IMG/VR virus record: IMGVR_UViG_3300022602_000222
Location: 1 to 38,889 of that record
Strand: one strand, 5' to 3'
Length of the DNA stretch: 38,889 bases
Origin: a virus
The notes below the pieces were generated by a model. The model was not told the origin of the DNA. It saw only the letters and a program-made list of their open reading frames with translations, and did no database searches. Shown here in pieces: positions 4,893-19,433 of this stretch. The first letter of the stretch is position 1, and every line of letters starts with the position of its first letter. A program made the translations under genes and the position numbers.

Positions 4893-5268
4893 AGCTTTCA
4901 AACGTAAATACATTCATGAAGCTACTGGAGATGTGCTTACCTTTAGTGAGCAGATCTCATGGAAAGTCCAAGGCATTATCCGCAACTGGTATTTTGTTAT
5001 TGTCTGGTCGACTGTAACGTTTATCTGGTGGATCCAACCTACATGGTTTACTGATACCCATGCTTATATCAAGTGGATGAACGTAGCATCATGGCTAGCA
5101 GTAACAGTTGAATTAGTTATTGGTATTGCCATGATTGGTCAGACCAAACGTGATGCTCAAATCATCCGCGCCATTTACAAGATATTACCTGAGATCCAGC
5201 AAGCCCTTGAATACATCCGCAAGCTCGAAGAGCGAGAAATCAAAATGATTGAGGAACTCAATGATTAA
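4885..5268 (+). CDS. Two-pass membrane protein, candidate holin
   Basis: The 127-residue product carries two hydrophobic segments: about residues 36-50 (WYFVIVWSTVTFIWW) and 68-86 (VASWLAVTVELVIGIAMIG). A charged, helical C-terminal tail follows (residues 98-127, rich in Glu, Lys and Ile). It overlaps genes on both sides and is followed at once by two peptidoglycan- or amide-cleaving enzymes. Two-helix holins are common in phages, so this is the best holin candidate in the window, but the similarity is one of topology only. Confidence 0.5.
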   Translation: MIKAFKRKYIHEATGDVLTFSEQISWKVQGIIRNWYFVIVWSTVTFIWWIQPTWFTDTHAYIKWMNVASWLAVTVELVIGIAMIGQTKRDAQIIRAIYKILPEIQQALEYIRKLEEREIKMIEELND

Positions 5269-5749
5269 CTATGAACCAAGGATCGGGGACTTCGGTGTTG
5301 TTAGAAGCAATGGCATCTTTGCTCGCCTCATTCAGCTTGGAACCCTATCGCGTTGGAACCATGCGTTCGTCTATATTGGCGATGGCTACATTGTTGAAGC
5401 CACACCCAAAGGTGTAATCAAAAGCAAAGTATCTAAGTACACCAACGTTGCGTGGAACAAACATGAAAGCCTTAACCATGAAGAGCGTCAGCAGATTGTT
5501 ATGTTTGCTCTCAAAGCAGTAGGACAACCTTATAACTTTATTGTTATAGGAAACATTGCCCTTCGCATCTTAGGTCTTAAGCTTCTTGCTAAGACCAAAT
5601 TGATGTACCACTGGGCTCAGGCTACCAAGGGATACATCTGCTCTGAGTTAGTAGCAGAAGCATACGAATCCATTGGCGAGAACCTATGTAATAAAGATCC
5701 AGACCTAGTAACCCCCGGCGATCTAGCAGAAAGGCTGGTTTATCTATGA
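5261..5749 (+). CDS. YiiX-like permuted papain-fold hydrolase
   Basis: The 162-residue product starts MINYEPRIGDFGVVRS. I chose ATG 5261, with GAGG six bases before it, over an in-frame TTG at 5249. Motifs fit the permuted NlpC/P60-like group (YiiX/DUF830): GDFGVV near the start, the His of WNHAFVYIGDGYIVEA (H34), and a late ICSELVAEAY with the likely nucleophile C127. Such enzymes cleave amide or ester bonds, in phages often in peptidoglycan stem peptides. It overlaps the membrane protein before it and the amidase after it (ATGA), so it belongs to the lysis cassette. The fold call is fairly confident; the substrate is inferred. Confidence 0.75.
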   Translation: MINYEPRIGDFGVVRSNGIFARLIQLGTLSRWNHAFVYIGDGYIVEATPKGVIKSKVSKYTNVAWNKHESLNHEERQQIVMFALKAVGQPYNFIVIGNIALRILGLKLLAKTKLMYHWAQATKGYICSELVAEAYESIGENLCNKDPDLVTPGDLAERLVYL

Positions 5750-6288
5750 CCTATCCATTTATTGGAGCCAAACATTTTACCCCCGGACGTGGCAACAACA
5801 AGATTCGTCTTATCGTAGTACATACAATGGAGACACCAGAAAATCGTGGTCGTGCCTATCAGGTAGCCCAATGGTTTGCTAGTCCGTCCAGCCCACAAGC
5901 ATCAGCCCATTACATGGTAGATAATGCAGAGGTATACCAGTCTGTCAAAGATACTGATACTGCATGGGCAGTAGACGACTTTGAACTTAACCAACAATCA
6001 ATCTCTATCGAGCATGCTGGTGAGGCATCACAAACTCCTGCCGATTGGCAAGACACATACTCACAAGCTGAGCTTAATCTGAGCGCTACCTTAGCAGCGC
6101 AACTTGCTAAAGAATACAACATTCCTATTGTCAAGCTATCACCAGCAGATATTCTTGCTGGTAAGGCTGGCTTCTGTGGACACGTTGATATTACTGAGGC
6201 TAAGAAAATTGCTGGCGGTCACACAGATCCGGGTACCAACTTTCCTTGGACTAAGTATCTTGCCAAGGTACAATCCCAATCCCACTAA
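5746..6288 (+). CDS. N-acetylmuramoyl-L-alanine amidase endolysin
   Basis: The 180-residue product is an amidase_2 (T7 lysozyme/PGRP) domain. It shows the RLIVVHTME strand with zinc ligand H26, SAHYMVD (H55), the SISIEHAG strand, and the C-terminal GHVDIT (H146) and GGHTDPG (H159, D161) segments. It would cut the bond between MurNAc and L-Ala of host peptidoglycan at the end of infection. There is no signal peptide and no separate wall-binding domain, so export would rely on the holin candidate. The start overlaps the previous stop (ATGA). Length is normal for a single-domain amidase. Confidence 0.93.
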   Translation: MTYPFIGAKHFTPGRGNNKIRLIVVHTMETPENRGRAYQVAQWFASPSSPQASAHYMVDNAEVYQSVKDTDTAWAVDDFELNQQSISIEHAGEASQTPADWQDTYSQAELNLSATLAAQLAKEYNIPIVKLSPADILAGKAGFCGHVDITEAKKIAGGHTDPGTNFPWTKYLAKVQSQSH

Positions 6289-7600: not shown

Positions 7601-7627
7601 AGATCACCTCTGTGGAGAGGTGATCTT
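7600..7627. other. Perfect 12-bp hairpin at the whiB stop
   Basis: AAGATCACCTCT, loop GTGG, AGAGGTGATCTT. The hairpin covers the last codons and stop of whiB. There is no T-run on either side, so an mRNA 3'-end stabiliser, processing site or operator is more likely than a classic terminator. Confidence 0.6.
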
Positions 7628-7885
7628 CTGCTCTGACATTCTTTCCCGTTCAGCTACAGTAGTGTTAGCCCACCAGCCGTCCATCTGATACTTGATGGCA
7701 TAGGCAAGACAGTCTTCAATTACAGTACAGCTATCACATATCTTCTTAATGTAACTGAAGTCGTAGTTACCTGAACCTTCAGTAAAGAAAGACTCGGGAT
7801 CTGTGTTAGCACAGGCAGCATTTAACTTCCATAGTTCTTCCTCATAGGGAATAAACAAGTACTTGTCATCCTGTCTAATGTCCAT
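7604..7885 (-). CDS. whiB: WhiB-family transcription factor
   Basis: The 93-residue product has the Wbl signature: WKLNAACANTDPESFF with C25, then ICDSCTVIEDCLAYAI with C50, C53 and C59, and the turn GWWANTTVAERERM. The four cysteines hold a [4Fe-4S] cluster, and such proteins bind the host primary sigma factor to redirect transcription. The usual G[VI]WGG turn is altered to GWWAN. The ATG has GGAGGAT seven bases upstream and follows the FmdB-like gene with no gap. Phage WhiBs (for example in mycobacteriophage TM4) can repress host whiB2 and cause superinfection exclusion. Here it may switch host or phage transcription (inference). Confidence 0.93.
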   Translation of the reverse strand: MDIRQDDKYLFIPYEEELWKLNAACANTDPESFFTEGSGNYDFSYIKKICDSCTVIEDCLAYAIKYQMDGWWANTTVAERERMSEQKITSPQR

Positions 7886-8053: not shown

Positions 8054-8237
8054 AGTCCATCCCATCATCAATAGGTGTGGGTGCAGTCAGCAGGGCACCG
8101 CATTCAAAGCACTCCTGCTCTAGGTCATACCAGCCCGGTAGCCTAGTCTCTTCGTCCCACTGCACCCGAAGATTAAATACTTTGCAGCCACAGATGCAAG
8201 CAAATGTAGGCGTACCTTTAAGATCAAGCTTTGTCAT
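8046..8237 (-). CDS. Small two-knuckle zinc-finger protein
   Basis: The 63-residue product starts MTKLDLKGTPTFACICGC; I chose ATG 8237 with GGAAG upstream rather than an ATG at 8273 far inside the glycosyltransferase gene. ACICGC and, further on, QECFECGALL provide two cysteine pairs about 30 residues apart, a likely zinc site. It overlaps the glycosyltransferase stop upstream and the FmdB-like start downstream, so it is translated within a coupled run. Function unknown. Confidence 0.65.
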   Translation of the reverse strand: MTKLDLKGTPTFACICGCKVFNLRVQWDEETRLPGWYDLEQECFECGALLTAPTPIDDGMDCA

Positions 8238-8961
8238 CTTGCTTCCAGAACATATCGTAAAATCCTTTATCAAAGGAGAAACGTTTCATATGCTGAACTG
8301 TTGCACCAGTGTGTGCATATAGTGGCACACCTGCTTCATGCATCAAGCGGAAGAACCTAATGTCTTCGGATACAAACTGCTCACCTTTGCCAGTCTCTAC
8401 AAAGAATGGGATGTCACCATGGAACTCACGCATCTTCTTCACTGCGTTCCGGTGCATGAATACAAACCCAAAGCCAGCAGCACCAACACGAATGAGTTGG
8501 TTCTCTGGTAGCGGGTGGGCATAGACAATCTTGTATGGGTCGTCAGTCCAAGAGAACAGGGCAGGGAACGGAGTCATCAGTGACTGCTCGTTCTCCTTTG
8601 AGATGAAGTACGTACCTGTTACCACTGGTTTATCAATGGCATTGCAGTAGTACCACACGGCTTCAAGTGCTTGCTTAGTAAGTACAATGTCAGAGTCAAC
8701 CCATAGAATCCATGGGAAATCTGTGTGTTCGTACCAATAAGTTAAAGCTTGCTCACGCTGTCTGCCAATCTGATTGCCTTGCACACGCATGGCAGATGCA
8801 ATAGGTACGTTGCTGTTGAGAATGCCATAGACCAGACCTTCGGTAAACTTGCCGTCGGTATTGCCATTATCACACCAACATACTATGACATCTTCATTCC
8901 GAATAAAGGTCGGCTTGTCCTGTACTTTCTGTGCTTGGTTCTTCTTGGGTGTCTTGGTCAT
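8224..8961 (-). CDS. GT-A fold glycosyltransferase
   Basis: The 245-residue product contains the DxD metal- and nucleotide-sugar-binding motif in PWILWVDSDIVLT (D89, D91). Later it has GAAGFGFVFMHRNAVKKM and SEDIRFFRLMHEAGVPLYAHTGATVQHM, typical of family 2-like phage glycosyltransferases. It would move a sugar from a nucleotide donor to an acceptor, possibly DNA bases, a host wall polymer or a virion protein. The acceptor cannot be read from sequence. The start lies inside the sigma-like gene (68-base overlap). No membrane segment, so it is cytoplasmic. Confidence 0.85.
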   Translation of the reverse strand: MTKTPKKNQAQKVQDKPTFIRNEDVIVCWCDNGNTDGKFTEGLVYGILNSNVPIASAMRVQGNQIGRQREQALTYWYEHTDFPWILWVDSDIVLTKQALEAVWYYCNAIDKPVVTGTYFISKENEQSLMTPFPALFSWTDDPYKIVYAHPLPENQLIRVGAAGFGFVFMHRNAVKKMREFHGDIPFFVETGKGEQFVSEDIRFFRLMHEAGVPLYAHTGATVQHMKRFSFDKGFYDMFWKQDDKA

Positions 8962-9571: not shown

Positions 9572-10308
9572 GGTAGGACTATCTCTCCATTAACAATAGG
9601 CACAGTGTATGGAGTAACCTTGCGGTTCTTTTCTACCAAAATACCAAAGCCTTGTTGCCAGTTAGCAATACCAGTGTTGAGGTATGAGGCTTGCTTAATG
9701 TCCATGAGATGACCTACCTCTAAGCCGAACAATGTATTGGTGTTACCATTGAGGCCGGTAGTTTCATGCTGTAGTCCTAGCTTATGTGTATGCCCACAGA
9801 CTACAGACTTGCCTAGCTTCTTGGCTAGGCTCATAGCAGTAGAACCCGGTACTTGCACAGAGCGTCCCTCATCGCCGTGAGCCATTACCCAACCGGGTAG
9901 CAACTCTTTGAACTGGTGCAAGTACTGGATTCCTAAAGAGTTATACCCCAGCAATTCTTCGATCTTGAGTGAATCAAGAGACGAGAATGCCGGGGCATAC
10001 TTGGAGATGTATGTCTGGATCCGATCGGTATGATTGGATCGTTGGATAATAAACGGCTTCTTCCAACCGAGAGCTTCTCGGAAGTCAGCCATGATGTTAT
10101 AGGTTAAATCAATTGAGTCCTGCAGTGTTGGCGCATACTCGCCAGCCATGCCTTTGTTCCATCGACTAGGCTCAGGAGCATCAAGCTCATCACCTACACA
10201 CCATAGTTCATCAGGCTTGTAATCCTTTATGAAAGATAGCACGGTTTTCACGGCCTTTGGATCGTGATATGGAATCTGCAGGTCGCTTAGTACTACTACT
10301 CTTCGCAC
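9568..10308 (-). CDS. Calcineurin-like metallophosphoesterase
   Basis: The product shows the five motifs of the family in order: VVVLSDLQIPYHD, WCVGDELD, an altered GNHD motif reading RSNHTDR, VMAHGDEG and CGHTHK. These bind two metal ions and hydrolyse phosphomonoesters or diesters. I chose GTG 10308 (MRRVVVLSDLQ...) because GGGAAGG lies eight bases upstream; an ATG at 10332 adds eight residues but has no ribosome site. Even so, it overlaps the upstream DUF1599-like gene by about 98 bases. Phage enzymes of this type act in nucleic-acid processing or nucleotide metabolism; the substrate here is unknown. Confidence 0.87.
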   Translation of the reverse strand: MRRVVVLSDLQIPYHDPKAVKTVLSFIKDYKPDELWCVGDELDAPEPSRWNKGMAGEYAPTLQDSIDLTYNIMADFREALGWKKPFIIQRSNHTDRIQTYISKYAPAFSSLDSLKIEELLGYNSLGIQYLHQFKELLPGWVMAHGDEGRSVQVPGSTAMSLAKKLGKSVVCGHTHKLGLQHETTGLNGNTNTLFGLEVGHLMDIKQASYLNTGIANWQQGFGILVEKNRKVTPYTVPIVNGEIVLP

Positions 10309-10588
10309 TAGGTACACCTTCCCACTGTCCATTTTGGACTAGTATGCCTATTATGGCATAGTTAGCAAGGTCGATGAACGTATCTCTGAGACTTTCATAG
10401 TTCGGCGTGTCGTTGTTTGTCTCGACCAGATGACTGAACCGCTGGAGTTTGTCAAACATTCGTACACGAAGTCCATTGTATGGACCTCCCGGGGCAAGTG
10501 ATATGTTAAGTGGACCGTAGTCTTGCTGCTTTTTAAGGAGGATTGACTTAAGTTCTCCAAGGATAATGTCGACATCACTTTCCTTCAT
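10211..10588 (-). CDS. DUF1599-like protein (nucleotide-modification-associated)
   Basis: The 125-residue product carries LLKKQQDYGPLNISLAPGGPYNGLRVRMFDKLQRFSHLV and then YESLRDTFIDLANYAIIGILV, the charged helical pattern of the DUF1599 family. That family is named for its occurrence near base-modification genes in phages and may be a nucleotide-pyrophosphatase-like all-alpha fold (established association; mechanism inferred). The recognisable domain ends at about residue 89. The remaining Ser/Arg/Lys-rich tail overlaps the phosphoesterase gene in another frame and may be non-essential read-through. Confidence 0.7.
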   Translation of the reverse strand: MKESDVDIILGELKSILLKKQQDYGPLNISLAPGGPYNGLRVRMFDKLQRFSHLVETNNDTPNYESLRDTFIDLANYAIIGILVQNGQWEGVPSAKSSSTKRPADSISRSKGRENRAIFHKGLQA

Positions 10589-12863: not shown

Positions 12864-13312
12864 TACTTAATACGATCAGGTACGAATGTGTTCCACTCTG
12901 GACTATTCTTATCTACATAGACAGTCTTGCACTTGGATGGATCTCCTTGTGCTGAAGGACAGAAGTAACCTTTGTATACTCCGCCTTGCTTAGACTGACC
13001 TTGGATACCTGTCATCTTGCCATGAGGACAAGAGCGTCCGCCCCCAATAGGGGCTGCACTAAAAGGTGGTGTATCAACTACCTGTCCACCTAGTCCTGAT
13101 GCAACCAAGCCAATTGCTTGATTGATGCTAGATGCTGGTGATGCTGACGCACCACGTACTGCTGACTCTAGTTCTGTTACTGCTGAAGTGATAGCTGCTA
13201 GTCCAAGTGATACTAGGTTATCAAGTTCATCTGCGAACTCAGCTCGTACAGTTACAAGACTACCTGCTGGAGTCTTGACTGTGATACTGATAGGTGCTTC
13301 GGTGCTACTCAT
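12863..13312 (-). CDS. Zinc-ribbon protein of the recombination cluster
   Basis: I chose ATG 13312 (MSSTEAPISITVKTPAGSL), four bases after GGAG, giving 149 residues. An in-frame upstream start at 13417 would lie deep inside the nuclease gene. The N-terminus looks beta-rich, residues about 25-75 are helical and Ala/Ser-rich, and the C-terminal 50 residues form a ribbon: RSCPHGKMTGIQG, GYFCPSAQGDPSKC. Similar CPHG...YKGYFCP tails occur in phage proteins next to Cas4/RecB-like nucleases and ATPases, probably binding DNA. The function is inferred from context. Confidence 0.6.
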   Translation of the reverse strand: MSSTEAPISITVKTPAGSLVTVRAEFADELDNLVSLGLAAITSAVTELESAVRGASASPASSINQAIGLVASGLGGQVVDTPPFSAAPIGGGRSCPHGKMTGIQGQSKQGGVYKGYFCPSAQGDPSKCKTVYVDKNSPEWNTFVPDRIK

Positions 13313-13931
13313 CATTCTCCTTTGGTTGTACATACCAATCGCATACGTCTTTAAGTCCACACATCTTACAGTGGTTGAAGTTAGGTACAAAGATATGTGC
13401 CTTCCTTGCCGTGTCAAACATGGTGACTAACGTTTCGATCTTGCTGTCGGTATAGTCAGCGAGATCGAACGGTTCAGATAGTTCACCCTTACGTGCCATC
13501 CAGTAGTAACCCTTGGTTACTTCTAGACCATAGACTTTACGTAGCCCGTATGAGTAGAACGCTAGTTGTAAGGCAGACGTTGGTGTTGTCTTGCCTGTTT
13601 TAAGATCTACGATAGCGTACTCTTCACGCTCTGTGTCGTAGAACACACGGTCGATAAACATTTTTACTTCTACCTCACCTACATATGGTGAAGCCTCCAT
13701 TTCTACAGCTAGTGTGCCATCACTAAGCTCAGCAATCTTCATGTGTGGGTTAGCTTTACGCCAGTCAACCCATCGTTCATAGAACTTGTAGCCATTGGTA
13801 AACCACCAGTCACCGTCTTCTGGATTGCGACGAGGTGATGCTACTCTCCAGTTACTCTTGTCACCTTGGTATTCAGCCCGCTCATTGGCAGTCTCTGTCC
13901 ACCATAGTTTCCAGTCATCAAGTAATGTCAT
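13305..13931 (-). CDS. Cas4/RecB-like Fe-S nuclease, catalytic part
   Basis: The 208-residue product contains the PD-(D/E)XK core: MFIDRVFYD (D94), AIVDLKTGK (D109, K111), and the QLAFYSYGL helix (Q122, Y126). It closes with three cysteines (C188, C191, C197) in HCKMCGLKDVCDWY. In Cas4/AddB-type exonucleases these join one cysteine near the N-terminus to hold a [4Fe-4S] cluster. That fourth cysteine is absent here but present in the small gene just upstream (13928-14116), joined by ATGA. AAGAGG precedes the ATG. Likely a 5'-3' exonuclease for end processing or recombination. Confidence 0.85.
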   Translation of the reverse strand: MTLLDDWKLWWTETANERAEYQGDKSNWRVASPRRNPEDGDWWFTNGYKFYERWVDWRKANPHMKIAELSDGTLAVEMEASPYVGEVEVKMFIDRVFYDTEREEYAIVDLKTGKTTPTSALQLAFYSYGLRKVYGLEVTKGYYWMARKGELSEPFDLADYTDSKIETLVTMFDTARKAHIFVPNFNHCKMCGLKDVCDWYVQPKENDE

Positions 13932-14116
13932 GGGTTCCTCTTATCGTATTCTTCAGTGGCACGGTGTACTGCACTGCCACCATAGAACCACCATGCCGGT
14001 TGCTCTTGATGTTTCTTTACACGGTTAAGATAGTACAGCCAACCACAATCAATCCATGTGGTTAAGCTTGAGTACGAGATATGTTCTGGCAGTTCATTGC
14101 CATCAATAGTAATCAT
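13928..14116 (-). CDS. Cas4/RecB-like nuclease, N-terminal part
   Basis: The 62-residue product, from ATG 14116 with AAGGAG upstream, reads SYSSLTTWIDCGWLYYLNRV (C24) and then YGGSAVHRATEEYDKR (H51, E56). These are the normal N-terminal features of Cas4/RecB-type nucleases: a SYS start, the first Fe-S cysteine, and the GxxxH helix. The frame stops at TGA overlapping the ATG of the catalytic part (ATGA). The two proteins together hold every expected residue, so they may assemble as a two-chain enzyme, or the stop may be bypassed by frameshift. Confidence 0.8.
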   Translation of the reverse strand: MITIDGNELPEHISYSSLTTWIDCGWLYYLNRVKKHQEQPAWWFYGGSAVHRATEEYDKRNP

Positions 14117-14139
14117 TGTTCTCCTTAGTAGAGACATGA

Positions 14140-14174
14140 CAGGGTAGGGAAACAAAGGAAGAAAACCTACCCTG
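14140..14174. other. 9-bp hairpin in the nuclease leader
   Basis: CAGGGTAGG and CCTACCCTG are separated by a 17-base purine-rich loop. No T-run follows on either strand. It lies just upstream of the nuclease N-terminal gene, in its leader. Confidence 0.5.
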
Positions 14175-14394: not shown

Positions 14395-14498
14395 TCTTCA
14401 CCTCGCTCATCGTGTAGCTTATCTGGATCTTCAATGGTATCATCAGCATAGTCTTCTGATGCTGAGCCATGCCCTGACATCCACATTGGTTCACTCAT
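14391..14498 (-). CDS. Acidic small protein (35 aa)
   Basis: The ATG overlaps the amidotransferase stop by one base (TAATG). The product (MSEPMWMSGHGSASEDYADD...) is strongly acidic and probably disordered. It is coupled to genes on both sides, which supports translation, but it has no recognisable motif. Confidence 0.5.
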   Translation of the reverse strand: MSEPMWMSGHGSASEDYADDTIEDPDKLHDERGEE

Positions 14499-15358
14499 TA
14501 GTAATCCCAATCTTTACTAGCCCAACCATTGGCTGCGTAATCTTTGTAATCACTCTGACCTACACTTACTTTGCCACTGCTAGTGTATTTGCATAGGCAT
14601 TCATTGAATGATGATAAGCAATCAAAGCACCAGCCACAACTAGGACATGTGTAATCAGAAGAAACAATAATGTCATACTCATGCATGCTGTCACAGCTTG
14701 GGCATTCATACACATCATCAAGATCATCGGCATCATCTAGCCACGTGGATACACCTTTGGTTTTCTTACGTGGATCTGCATAGCCATAGTCTAGGTAACA
14801 TGAATCATTAGACCACCACACACCAGTCTCATCTTCTTTACCTGCATTAGCATTAAGCAGATACATCTGATACTTGGCTGCTGGATCAACAGTAAGCACA
14901 GCTACCTTAGAACCAACACAGTAATCTTCTAGCATCTCAAAGATGTAGTCGTTGTCAAGACTAGACACACCACCAATAGCAGGTAGCATCTCTTCAGCAA
15001 AGACACGGGTATCACTGCGGTCATCTTGCTTAGCAATGGTAACAGGTAACACACCATTGTGTGCTAGGTATGTACGCTGATCATTGCCTACAATAAATGG
15101 ATGACAGTTATCTACAGTACGTGAACCATGAGTAGCATAGCGAGCATGCCACATAGCATAGCCATTAGGATAATAACTACGTAGTTCTAAGAACCGATTG
15201 ATAGATTCATCTGCGCTCATTGTACGCTCACGCAAGATACGGTTCTCTTCTGGTATGACAATGGCAAAGCCATAGCCATGCGGGTTGTTAAGTGCTGAGT
15301 TCTCTAGCTTCTCACGACTAGGCATTACTCCGGGCGGTACTACACATAGCATACACAT
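14498..15358 (-). CDS. Class II (Ntn) glutamine amidotransferase with zinc ribbon
   Basis: The 286-residue product starts MCMLC, so C2 becomes the N-terminal nucleophile once Met is removed. Family motifs follow: AMWHARYATHG (R73), CHPF (H86), and LAHNG (H100-G102). These define the GAT-II fold (GlmS/PurF type), which frees ammonia from glutamine for a partner enzyme. From residue about 213 there is a zinc-ribbon region with CPSCDS, CPSCGWCFDC and CLC. The start overlaps the amidoligase stop (TAATG), so the pair is made together. The ammonia acceptor is probably the amidoligase substrate (inference). Confidence 0.87.
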   Translation of the reverse strand: MCMLCVVPPGVMPSREKLENSALNNPHGYGFAIVIPEENRILRERTMSADESINRFLELRSYYPNGYAMWHARYATHGSRTVDNCHPFIVGNDQRTYLAHNGVLPVTIAKQDDRSDTRVFAEEMLPAIGGVSSLDNDYIFEMLEDYCVGSKVAVLTVDPAAKYQMYLLNANAGKEDETGVWWSNDSCYLDYGYADPRKKTKGVSTWLDDADDLDDVYECPSCDSMHEYDIIVSSDYTCPSCGWCFDCLSSFNECLCKYTSSGKVSVGQSDYKDYAANGWASKDWDY

Positions 15359-16686
15359 TAGTTCTGATCTCCTTCGTTAGATGTTTCTTTCTCATATAGT
15401 TCATTCATAATCAAGAACAGATTAGGATATGTTTCACTGTTCTCTGATACATAAGATGCAAACCTTAGCCACGATAAAGGTTTGTTCTTAGGTACAATCA
15501 TCATGTCACGGGTATACTCAACAGCTGCAGTTACAAACTCAAGAGCAGATAGAACACGCTCTTTACGTAGTGAGCCACGGAACACACGGACTTCTAATGT
15601 AGAATCATTCTCAGTATTAACTGCTGAGTAACGACCAGCAGTTTGATTACCTAGTTTTACTTTAGGTACGATCTTACCTTTGTCATCGAACTTGGCATAG
15701 CTAGATGAACGACCAGCTAACCGTTCAACCATACGTTGATTGTCATAGATTAGTTTCATGAATCTAATCTGATGAGCTTCAGTTCTGGATAGATTCTGAG
15801 CAACTTTAAATGCAGTACGAGATACATGAACATGAATACCGCAAGTGCTAGTGTTCCACGAACGGAAGTTATAATCTTTAAGTTGCTTTAATGCATTCCA
15901 AGGGAAGTTGTCTTGCATTTCTTTAAGTGTATGTGGATGAGTAACAATCTCAAACCCATATCGTAATGATCCATCATGCTTAAGATAACCACGATTACCT
16001 AATGCATTGTATATTAACTCAGCACCTTGTTCGTAATCATCTTCATCTCCATGACGTTGCTCTACTTCTAACTCAAGACCAAGATAATACTTGTGTTCTA
16101 GATTAGGCCAGAAGACAGGGCGTGGTTTGAAACCATAGCTGTGAATGTATTGTGCGCCTGGTTCTTCGCTGTTGTTATCGCAATCATGATCTGGCATGTT
16201 GACAAGATAATCTTCATAGCCACAATCATTGCAATCAAAGTATCTACTTTCATTGCAGTAACTACATACATCATCATCTAGCCAATCACTATATACACTA
16301 TCGTTAGTAGCAACAGTTGTGCCACAACCTGTGCAATCTACATGGTCATCACCAATATATTCAAACCATACATCACTACATTCTTTGCAATATAATTCAC
16401 GATTGATATCGCAAGCGTAACGTCTAGTCTTTCTTTCTTCACATTGATAACAAACAACAGTACATGCTTCATGATACATTTGTGGTTCATCATCAACTAT
16501 GATTGTTGTTGGCAACCATATTCCATTTGAACGTATGTGATGAGTAAGATAATATTCACGATAGTCTAGCCAGTTAATATCAGCAGGCCATATTTTATTG
16601 TCACATCCTTGACATGTGCCTAACTCTATTGGCACGGGTGAAGCATTGGTAGGTTCTGTTAACGCTACCTCTTGTACATCTGGCAT
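15358..16686 (-). CDS. Amidoligase (GCS/glutamine-synthetase-like) with zinc ribbons
   Basis: The 442-residue product has a cysteine-rich N-terminal third with repeated CxxC knuckles (25-28, 79-82, 118-121, 141-144 and more), then an amidoligase_2 domain. Its motifs are YYLGLELEVE (201-209), HDGSLRYGFEIVTHP (237-251), CGIHVHVSR (282-290), GRYSAVN (351-357) and TLEVRVFRGSL (363-373). The family joins carboxyl and amino groups using ATP and is often paired with a class II amidotransferase, which lies directly downstream here. It could amidate or cross-link a peptide, protein or wall component; the zinc ribbons suggest protein or nucleic-acid binding. AGGAGG precedes the ATG. Confidence 0.85.
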   Translation of the reverse strand: MPDVQEVALTEPTNASPVPIELGTCQGCDNKIWPADINWLDYREYYLTHHIRSNGIWLPTTIIVDDEPQMYHEACTVVCYQCEERKTRRYACDINRELYCKECSDVWFEYIGDDHVDCTGCGTTVATNDSVYSDWLDDDVCSYCNESRYFDCNDCGYEDYLVNMPDHDCDNNSEEPGAQYIHSYGFKPRPVFWPNLEHKYYLGLELEVEQRHGDEDDYEQGAELIYNALGNRGYLKHDGSLRYGFEIVTHPHTLKEMQDNFPWNALKQLKDYNFRSWNTSTCGIHVHVSRTAFKVAQNLSRTEAHQIRFMKLIYDNQRMVERLAGRSSSYAKFDDKGKIVPKVKLGNQTAGRYSAVNTENDSTLEVRVFRGSLRKERVLSALEFVTAAVEYTRDMMIVPKNKPLSWLRFASYVSENSETYPNLFLIMNELYEKETSNEGDQN

Positions 16687-19300: not shown

Positions 19301-19325
19301 TTTGAACGGATTAATACTGTATAGA
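19301..19325 (+). promoter_or_regulatory. Composite box before the terminase arm
   Basis: TTTGAACGGA, four bases, TACTGTA (19315-19321) leading into TAGA. It matches the box at 7580-7600 in order and spacing. A second TACAGTATAGA lies at 19379-19389, about 45 bases before the terminase start and followed by a small hairpin (AGACG, GGAAA, CGTCT at 19402-19416). Confidence 0.45.
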
Positions 19326-19433
19326 GCAGTAAGTTATTCGCAGGCTTTTATATAGCCTGCTCATACTGTTACAGACAGTACAGTATAGACAGACAGTTTG
19401 TAGACGGGAAACGTCTGTCAAGGGGGCGGCGAC

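What the first reader, a model, noticed from the sequence alone, without database searches (positions are those of the whole stretch)
14498..16686. Coupled amidoligase and class II glutamine amidotransferase, both with zinc ribbons
An amidoligase_2 protein (GLELEVE, CGIHVHVSR, RYSAVN, TLEVRVFRGSL) is translated in overlap (TAATG) with a GAT-II enzyme whose C2, R73, H86 and HNG are all present. Such pairs are known from comparative genomics (Iyer and colleagues described amidoligase systems with peptide-modification roles) but are poorly tested. Here both partners carry extra zinc ribbons, and a secreted transglycosylase lies just upstream. They could amidate or cross-link a host wall peptide, a protein or a tailed substrate, perhaps to shield the host or exclude other phages. 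This is the strongest candidate for an unexplored system.
Basis: partly seen in the sequence, partly recalled or inferred. Interest (0 to 1): 0.75.

Follow-up and report, generated by a model that had tools for sequence, protein, structure and literature searches.

The report
Phage amidoligase–amidotransferase pair with zinc fingers
A phage of actinobacteria carries two neighbouring, well-conserved enzyme genes that probably work together to put an amide group on some host molecule; such pairs are already known in phages, but what they modify has never been shown, and a relative in the laboratory phage Marvin makes it testable.

Summary
At 14498-16686 (minus strand) an Amidoligase_2 protein (442 aa) overlaps a class II glutamine amidotransferase (GAT-II, 286 aa) by one base (TAATG). 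The GlmS catalytic and glutamine-binding residues tested are kept in at least 64 of 65 relatives, except GlmS W74; the amidoligase model resembles YbdK, GmaS and glutamine synthetase. Cysteine-rich zinc-type modules on both proteins are near-invariant. GAT-II lies directly downstream in 62 of 63 amidoligase loci (the other is cut at its contig end), and 81 of 82 unique GATs have the amidoligase upstream.

Three corrections. (1) The pair is not new: Marvin-type mycobacteriophages (gp105/gp106), Methylophilales phages, mycobacterial plasmids and, within a larger cassette, LUZ24-type phages carry it. (2) The transglycosylase is not a fixed partner. (3) No small substrate gene is conserved beside the pair.

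New here: a stand-alone two-gene branch in phages of actinobacteria (WhiB in 18 of 19 relatives), lacking three enzymes of the 'peptidoglycan modification cassette', with zinc modules on both partners.

Most likely it is a glutamine-dependent amide synthetase acting on a host carboxylate, perhaps a wall peptide; the substrate is inferred. Verdict: known kind, well-supported module, unknown substrate.

The parts
15358..16686 (-). Amidoligase_2 (glutamine-synthetase-fold carboxylate-amine ligase), 442 aa, with N-terminal zinc modules
   Evidence: ORF; Pfam PF12224 E 4.2e-6; AF2 model pLDDT 82.5 with Foldseek best hits YbdK, GmaS, GS, Dop
16378..16614 (-). LIM-like double zinc finger of the amidoligase, residues 25-103 (CxxC...HxxC-x3-CxxC...CxxC)
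   Evidence: C25, C28, H72, C75, C82, C100, C103 invariant and C79 at least 90% in 46 relatives; weak LIM matches (Pfam E 0.044; PDB CRP2 E 0.038)
16180..16335 (-). Second zinc module of the amidoligase, residues 118-169 (CxxC-x19-CxxC, CxxC-x11-HxC)
   Evidence: C118, C141, C144, C152, C155, C169 invariant; C121, H167 at least 90%
15508..16086 (-). Amidoligase catalytic core, residues 201-393 (GxELEVE, EIVTHP, CGxHVHVSR, TLEVRVF)
   Evidence: Invariant motifs that align in order with E. coli YbdK (alignment probability itself low, 5.6%)
14498..15358 (-). Class II glutamine amidotransferase (Ntn fold), 286 aa; start codon overlaps the amidoligase stop (TAATG)
   Evidence: ORF; GATase_4 E 1.3e-6; AF2 model and Foldseek GlmS E 3.8e-7; GlmS C1, R73, T76, G78, N98, G99, D123 equivalents 65/65
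14591..14704 (-). C-terminal zinc module of the GAT, residues 219-256 (CxxC-x15-CxxC-x2-CxxC-x6-CxC)
   Evidence: C219, C222, C238, C241, C244, C247, C256 invariant; also in Marvin gp106 and the plasmid copies
16702..17154 (-). Secreted transglycosylase-like protein, 150 aa; neighbour, not a conserved partner of the pair
   Evidence: PHROG transglycosylase E 5e-13; adjacent to the amidoligase in 23 loci, on the opposite strand elsewhere in 35
7604..7885 (-). WhiB-like protein, used here as the marker of an actinobacterial host
   Evidence: PF02467 E 1.1e-13; in 18 of 19 near-full-length relatives, control rings only in Corynebacterium

Best explanation
The two genes encode a two-component, glutamine-dependent amide synthetase. 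The GAT-II hydrolyses glutamine to ammonia. The glutamine-synthetase-fold amidoligase activates a carboxylate with ATP as an acyl phosphate and ligates the ammonia (or another small amine) to it. The zinc modules are binding modules, for the partner or the substrate, not part of the chemistry. The substrate is host-derived, since no phage-encoded substrate gene travels with the pair; a peptide carboxylate of the actinobacterial cell wall is the leading guess. Shown: enzyme families, conserved active sites, strict gene coupling, marker of actinobacterial hosts. Inferred: ammonia transfer between the two, metal binding, substrate, and benefit to the phage.
For: GlmS residues that bind glutamine's free alpha-amino and alpha-carboxyl groups are kept in 65/65 sequences (R73, T76, G78, N98, G99, D123) with the nucleophile C1; a sequence-profile search finds PurF and GlmS, not EgtC, at E<1. 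The amidoligase model hits YbdK, GmaS, glutamine synthetase, bifunctional glutathione synthetase and Dop and nothing else in its top 31, and the four motifs align in order with YbdK. Adjacency in 62/63 and 81/82 loci, with short overlaps in part of the loci and 31-35 base gaps in others. The pair recurs together in otherwise different phages and elements: Marvin, MEP402, ctgrD200, mycobacterial plasmids. Purifying selection on both genes.
Against: No complex, channel or activity was shown. Fold-search TM-scores are low (0.31 and 0.45 by query), partly because the models carry extra domains. The amidoligase also exists without an adjacent GAT-II in Clostridioides phage AR1086-1, where the next gene is another kind of protein. 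The closest structural relatives YbdK and GmaS ligate glutamate to amines, so free ammonia need not be the nucleophile. A paper on the larger cassette reads the GAT as a degradative enzyme.
Confidence: 0.5

Rival explanations
1. Gamma-glutamyl relay as in ergothioneine synthesis (EgtA/EgtC): the amidoligase attaches glutamate through its gamma-carboxyl to an amine, and the GAT-II Ntn-hydrolase removes gamma-glutamyl groups instead of donating ammonia.
For: Best fold match of the amidoligase is YbdK, a glutamate-cysteine ligase; EgtC structures are among the GAT fold hits, E 8e-5; the same residues would recognise a gamma-glutamyl group.
Against: At sequence level the GAT resembles PurF and GlmS, with the RYATHG loop, and no EgtC appears at E<1.
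Confidence: 0.2
2. Reduced form of the phiEco32/LUZ24 'peptidoglycan modification cassette': the amidoligase makes an unusual bond in wall stem peptides and the GAT cuts or recycles it, so wall peptides are remodelled and superinfection blocked.
For: LUZ24 has amidoligase gp18 and GAT gp19 side by side in the cassette, and its GAT also has C-terminal CxxC pairs; the idea is published for related podoviruses (PMC5498523; PMC10580990).
Against: The other cassette enzymes were not found in the window and 18 relatives: COOH-NH2 ligase PF14395 (LUZ24 rings), gamma-glutamyl cyclotransferase, ATP-grasp (query rings in LUZ24 and a Rhizobium phage). The GAT keeps the residue for a free alpha-amino group, which wall gamma-D-glutamyl bonds lack.
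Confidence: 0.15
3. Part of a DNA hypermodification pathway: the pair amidates or aminates a carboxyl-bearing base or nucleotide.
For: The pair lies among replication genes; a DUF1599 'nucleotide modification associated' protein is in 19/19 relatives, and a glycosyltransferase gene is in the same operon direction.
Against: No thymidylate-synthase-like enzyme in any of 26 records; DUF1599 is absent from Marvin, MEP402, ctgrD200, two plasmids and LUZ24, which have the pair.
Confidence: 0.08
4. Protein modification: the zinc modules recruit a host protein, one of whose carboxylates is amidated or linked.
For: Zinc-type cysteines are the most rigidly conserved feature outside the catalytic cores; Dop, which acts on the protein Pup, is among the fold hits.
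Against: No direct evidence; no conserved substrate gene beside the pair.
Confidence: 0.07

Closest known systems
Mycobacteriophage Marvin gp105/gp106 (and the other Marvin-type records in the collection)
   Same: Same gene order, about 30% and 34% identity, catalytic motifs, GAT zinc module and second amidoligase zinc module
   Different: Lacks the first LIM-like zinc finger; pair lies at the right end of the genome, not in the replication operon; both annotated only as amidotransferase domain proteins
Mycobacterial plasmid pairs (pGD21-2 of M. abscessus, plasmid 2 of M. intracellulare subsp. chimaera, a plasmid of M. paragordonae)
   Same: Amidoligase followed by GAT; zinc-type cysteines in both where read
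   Different: Carried on ~150 kb plasmids; shorter amidoligase zinc region
Methylophilales (OM43) phages MEP401/402
   Same: Amidoligase directly followed by GAT; reported in PMC10580990
   Different: Gram-negative host; GAT has no zinc module; amidoligase zinc region differs
LUZ24/phiEco32 'peptidoglycan modification cassette'
   Same: Amidoligase_2 next to GAT-II; GAT with C-terminal cysteine pairs
   Different: Cassette adds PF14395 COOH-NH2 ligase, ATP-grasp and gamma-glutamyl cyclotransferase, not found here; LUZ24 amidoligase has no CxxC
MurT/GatD peptidoglycan amidating complex
   Same: Would work alike if the main model holds: glutaminase plus ATP-dependent ligase amidating a carboxylate
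   Different: By established knowledge MurT is a Mur ligase and GatD a class I GAT; not homologous
EgtA/EgtC of ergothioneine synthesis
   Same: GS-fold glutamate ligase plus class II GAT-type Ntn-hydrolase; EgtC among fold hits
   Different: No EgtC match by sequence profile at E<1; no other egt genes seen

Membership tests
Amidoligase_2 (PF12224) | Score above Pfam gathering threshold | tested here: met
   27.2 bits against 22; 45 of 46 relatives match
Amidoligase_2 (PF12224) | GS-fold catalytic motifs GxExE, HxH, ExR | tested here: met
   G203, E205, E207, H285, H287, E365, R367 invariant; aligned with YbdK; fold hits YbdK, GmaS, GS
Amidoligase_2 (PF12224) | ATP-dependent carboxylate-amine ligase activity | not testable with these tools
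   needs an enzyme assay
Class II glutamine amidotransferase | N-terminal nucleophile Cys after Met, and glutamine-binding residues | tested here: met
   C2, R73, T76, H77, G78, H86, N101, G102, D116 aligned to GlmS C1, R73, T76, H77, G78, H86, N98, G99, D123
Class II glutamine amidotransferase | Ntn-hydrolase fold | tested here: met
   AF2 model hits GlmS 1xff E 3.8e-7, PurF, EgtC
LUZ24/phiEco32 peptidoglycan modification cassette | Amidoligase_2 adjacent to GAT-II | tested here: met
LUZ24/phiEco32 peptidoglycan modification cassette | Additional PF14395 ligase, ATP-grasp and gamma-glutamyl cyclotransferase | tested here: not met
   not found in 19 records with LUZ24 as positive control; records may be incomplete; PF08443 was not a valid probe (missed LUZ24)
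Marvin-type two-gene pair | Stand-alone amidoligase then GAT, GAT with C-terminal zinc module | tested here: met
EgtA/EgtC | EgtC-like sequence and linked egt genes | tested here: not met
   no EgtC at E<1 in the profile search; no other egt gene among the ORFs scanned

The most novel reading that the evidence does not exclude
A distinct branch of amidoligase/GAT pairs on mobile elements of actinobacteria, with zinc modules on both enzymes, that forms a stable complex and amidates a so far unknown host molecule (wall peptide or protein) during infection.
Probability: 0.3. Interest if true: 0.65.

Novelty: new member of a known kind. Interest (0 to 1): 0.42.

Why it matters
Phage amidoligase/GAT pairs have been predicted since 2009 to modify peptides or walls, and none of the papers I could read reports a test. 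The stand-alone two-gene form found here, conserved in about 80 distinct phage loci, strips the question to two proteins. Its homologue gp105/gp106 is in Marvin, which grows on M. smegmatis mc2 155, so deletion, tagging and mass spectrometry are feasible in a standard laboratory system.

Tried and rejected
(a) L055 2446-4026 looked like a natural amidoligase-GAT fusion, but the join removes about a dozen GAT residues including the catalytic Cys and the zinc region is out of frame; treated as a deletion or assembly artefact. (b) PF08443 (RimK) as ATP-grasp probe: it missed LUZ24's own ATP-grasp, so its negatives were discarded and the LUZ24 gp21 protein used instead. (c) Cellular homologues: none by amidoligase seed in genome contigs (a strict pattern search); by GAT seed a single 3.3 kb contig in a Rhodobacteraceae MAG holding the pair, probably a binned phage fragment. 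(d) A conserved adjacent substrate gene: small families 13, 18, 19 and 35 are not shared by both lineages next to the pair. (e) Transglycosylase as operon partner: rejected. (f) Thymidylate-synthase-type DNA modification: none in 26 records. (g) GAT zinc module required for pairing: MEP402, ctgrD200 and gut contig MT839723 have a GAT without it. (h) Iyer 2009 and the Marvin genome paper are not held, so I could not check whether they mention the zinc modules.

Full report
Observation. Pfam gives Amidoligase_2 and GATase_4 above their cut-offs. PHROGs places them in families of unknown function, phrog_16683/22302 and phrog_25883. The window is an IMG/VR virus record of 38,889 bases, with terminase, portal, major head, primase, DnaB helicase, exonuclease, RusA-like resolvase and an Amidase_2 endolysin.

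Conservation and coupling. An amidoligase-seeded scan of viral contigs gave 63 loci. In 62 the GAT follows at once; the 63rd contig ends inside the amidoligase. A GAT-seeded scan gave the reverse: of 82 unique GATs with at least 500 bases upstream (both scans and the phage records pooled), 81 have the amidoligase directly upstream. The exception is a Rhizobium phage with a larger cassette. Gaps fall mainly in two groups, about -1 to 11 bases and 31-35 bases, so coupling of translation by overlap is not universal. dN/dS medians are 0.13 (GAT) and 0.19 (amidoligase).

Active sites. Aligned with E. coli GlmS, the GAT family keeps C1, R73, T76, G78, N98, G99 and D123 in 65 of 65 sequences and H77 and H86 in 64; W74 varies. 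The amidoligase family keeps GxELE, DGS, GFE-V, P251, CGxHVHxSR and the TLEVRVF core. AlphaFold2 models (mean pLDDT 82.5 and 77.2) match YbdK (E 4.8e-6), GmaS, glutamine synthetase and Dop for the amidoligase, and GlmS (3.8e-7), PurF and EgtC for the GAT. TM-scores are modest, so I rely on the agreement of family among the top hits. Sequence alignment to YbdK is weak in score (5.6% probability) but places the four motifs in order.

Zinc modules. The amidoligase has sixteen conserved Cys/His in two sets of eight, enough for four zinc ions: 25, 28, 72, 75, 79, 82, 100, 103 and 118, 121, 141, 144, 152, 155, 167, 169. The first set has LIM order with a long first loop; LIM similarity is only marginal. 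The GAT has 219, 222, 238, 241, 244, 247, 254 (sometimes Asp), 256. Metal binding is inferred. The GAT module is shared with Marvin gp106 and mycobacterial plasmid copies, and C-terminal CxxC pairs are present in LUZ24 gp19, but MEP402, ctgrD200 and MT839723 lack it although their amidoligases have cysteine clusters. So the module on one partner does not require that on the other.

Host. A WhiB-like protein occurs in the window (7604-7885) and in 18 of 19 near-full-length records including the window; among 14 control genomes WhiB rings only in Corynebacterium. WhiB proteins are known from actinobacteria and their phages (established knowledge). With Marvin and the mycobacterial plasmids this makes actinobacteria the main hosts.

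Surroundings. Two arrangements occur among the related phages. In the window's lineage the pair sits between an SSB-like gene and the transglycosylase-like gene upstream and the replication genes downstream. In the other it lies in a separate operon with WhiB and small proteins, the replication genes being on the other strand. The transglycosylase is next to the amidoligase in 23 loci and elsewhere on the opposite strand in 35, so it is not part of the system. No small gene next to the pair is common to both lineages.

Relation to known systems. Larger phage cassettes (LUZ24, tf, phiEco32, PSA-HP1) combine amidoligase and GAT with a second COOH-NH2 ligase, an ATP-grasp enzyme and gamma-glutamyl cyclotransferase, proposed to alter peptidoglycan and block superinfection (PMC5498523; PMC3890496; LUZ24 map). 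These three were not found in the window and 18 relatives, nor in Marvin, MEP402, ctgrD200 and two plasmids, with LUZ24 as positive control. The two-gene pair itself is reported in OM43 phages, where the authors also refer to Marvin (PMC10580990). Hence: new members of a known kind, in a well-defined stand-alone branch.

Mechanism. GAT glutamine recognition as in GlmS uses a free alpha-amino and alpha-carboxyl group, which free glutamine has and internal wall gamma-D-glutamyl bonds do not; this favours a glutaminase feeding ammonia to the ligase over a wall-bond hydrolase. This is an inference from residue conservation. The EgtA/EgtC-like alternative, adding and removing gamma-glutamyl groups, fits the same residues and is the main rival. 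Substrate identity cannot be settled from sequence. DNA modification is disfavoured: no thymidylate-synthase-like enzyme in 26 records, and the DUF1599 protein of this phage group is absent from the other pair carriers.

Verdict. Real, conserved and intact; known kind; unknown substrate; testable in Marvin.

Noticed in passing
window 10211-10588 (-): DUF1599 ('nucleotide modification associated domain 1') protein, present in all 19 near-full-length records examined; may point to modified nucleotides in this phage group.
   Followed up: partly
window 8224-8961 (-): Glycosyltransferase-like protein (phrog_34859, E 7.6e-89) between the replication genes and the WhiB gene.
   Followed up: no
window 13305-14155 (-): The PDDEXK exonuclease is split over two ORFs (13928-14155 and 13305-13931) that match successive parts of one PHROG family; several relatives show two family members in a row at the same place, so perhaps a two-piece form or a frameshift.
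   Followed up: no
window 5249-5749 and 5746-6288 (+): A peptidase C92/NlpC-P60-like protein directly before an Amidase_2 endolysin; wall-degrading enzymes besides the transglycosylase.
   Followed up: no
window 19314-19387 (+): A single tRNA-Ile with anticodon TAT just before the terminase gene.
   Followed up: no
L055 2446-4026: Single ORF joining amidoligase and GAT but lacking the GAT's catalytic Cys; probably a deletion or assembly chimera.
   Followed up: partly
L139 7959-9657 and L140 7084-8756: Amidoligase/GAT pairs on ~150 kb mycobacterial plasmids typed non-mobilizable; these may be phage-plasmids.
   Followed up: no
L135 5743-6855: Clostridioides phage AR1086-1 has an amidoligase relative without an adjacent GAT; the next gene looks like a nucleotidyltransferase.
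   Followed up: partly
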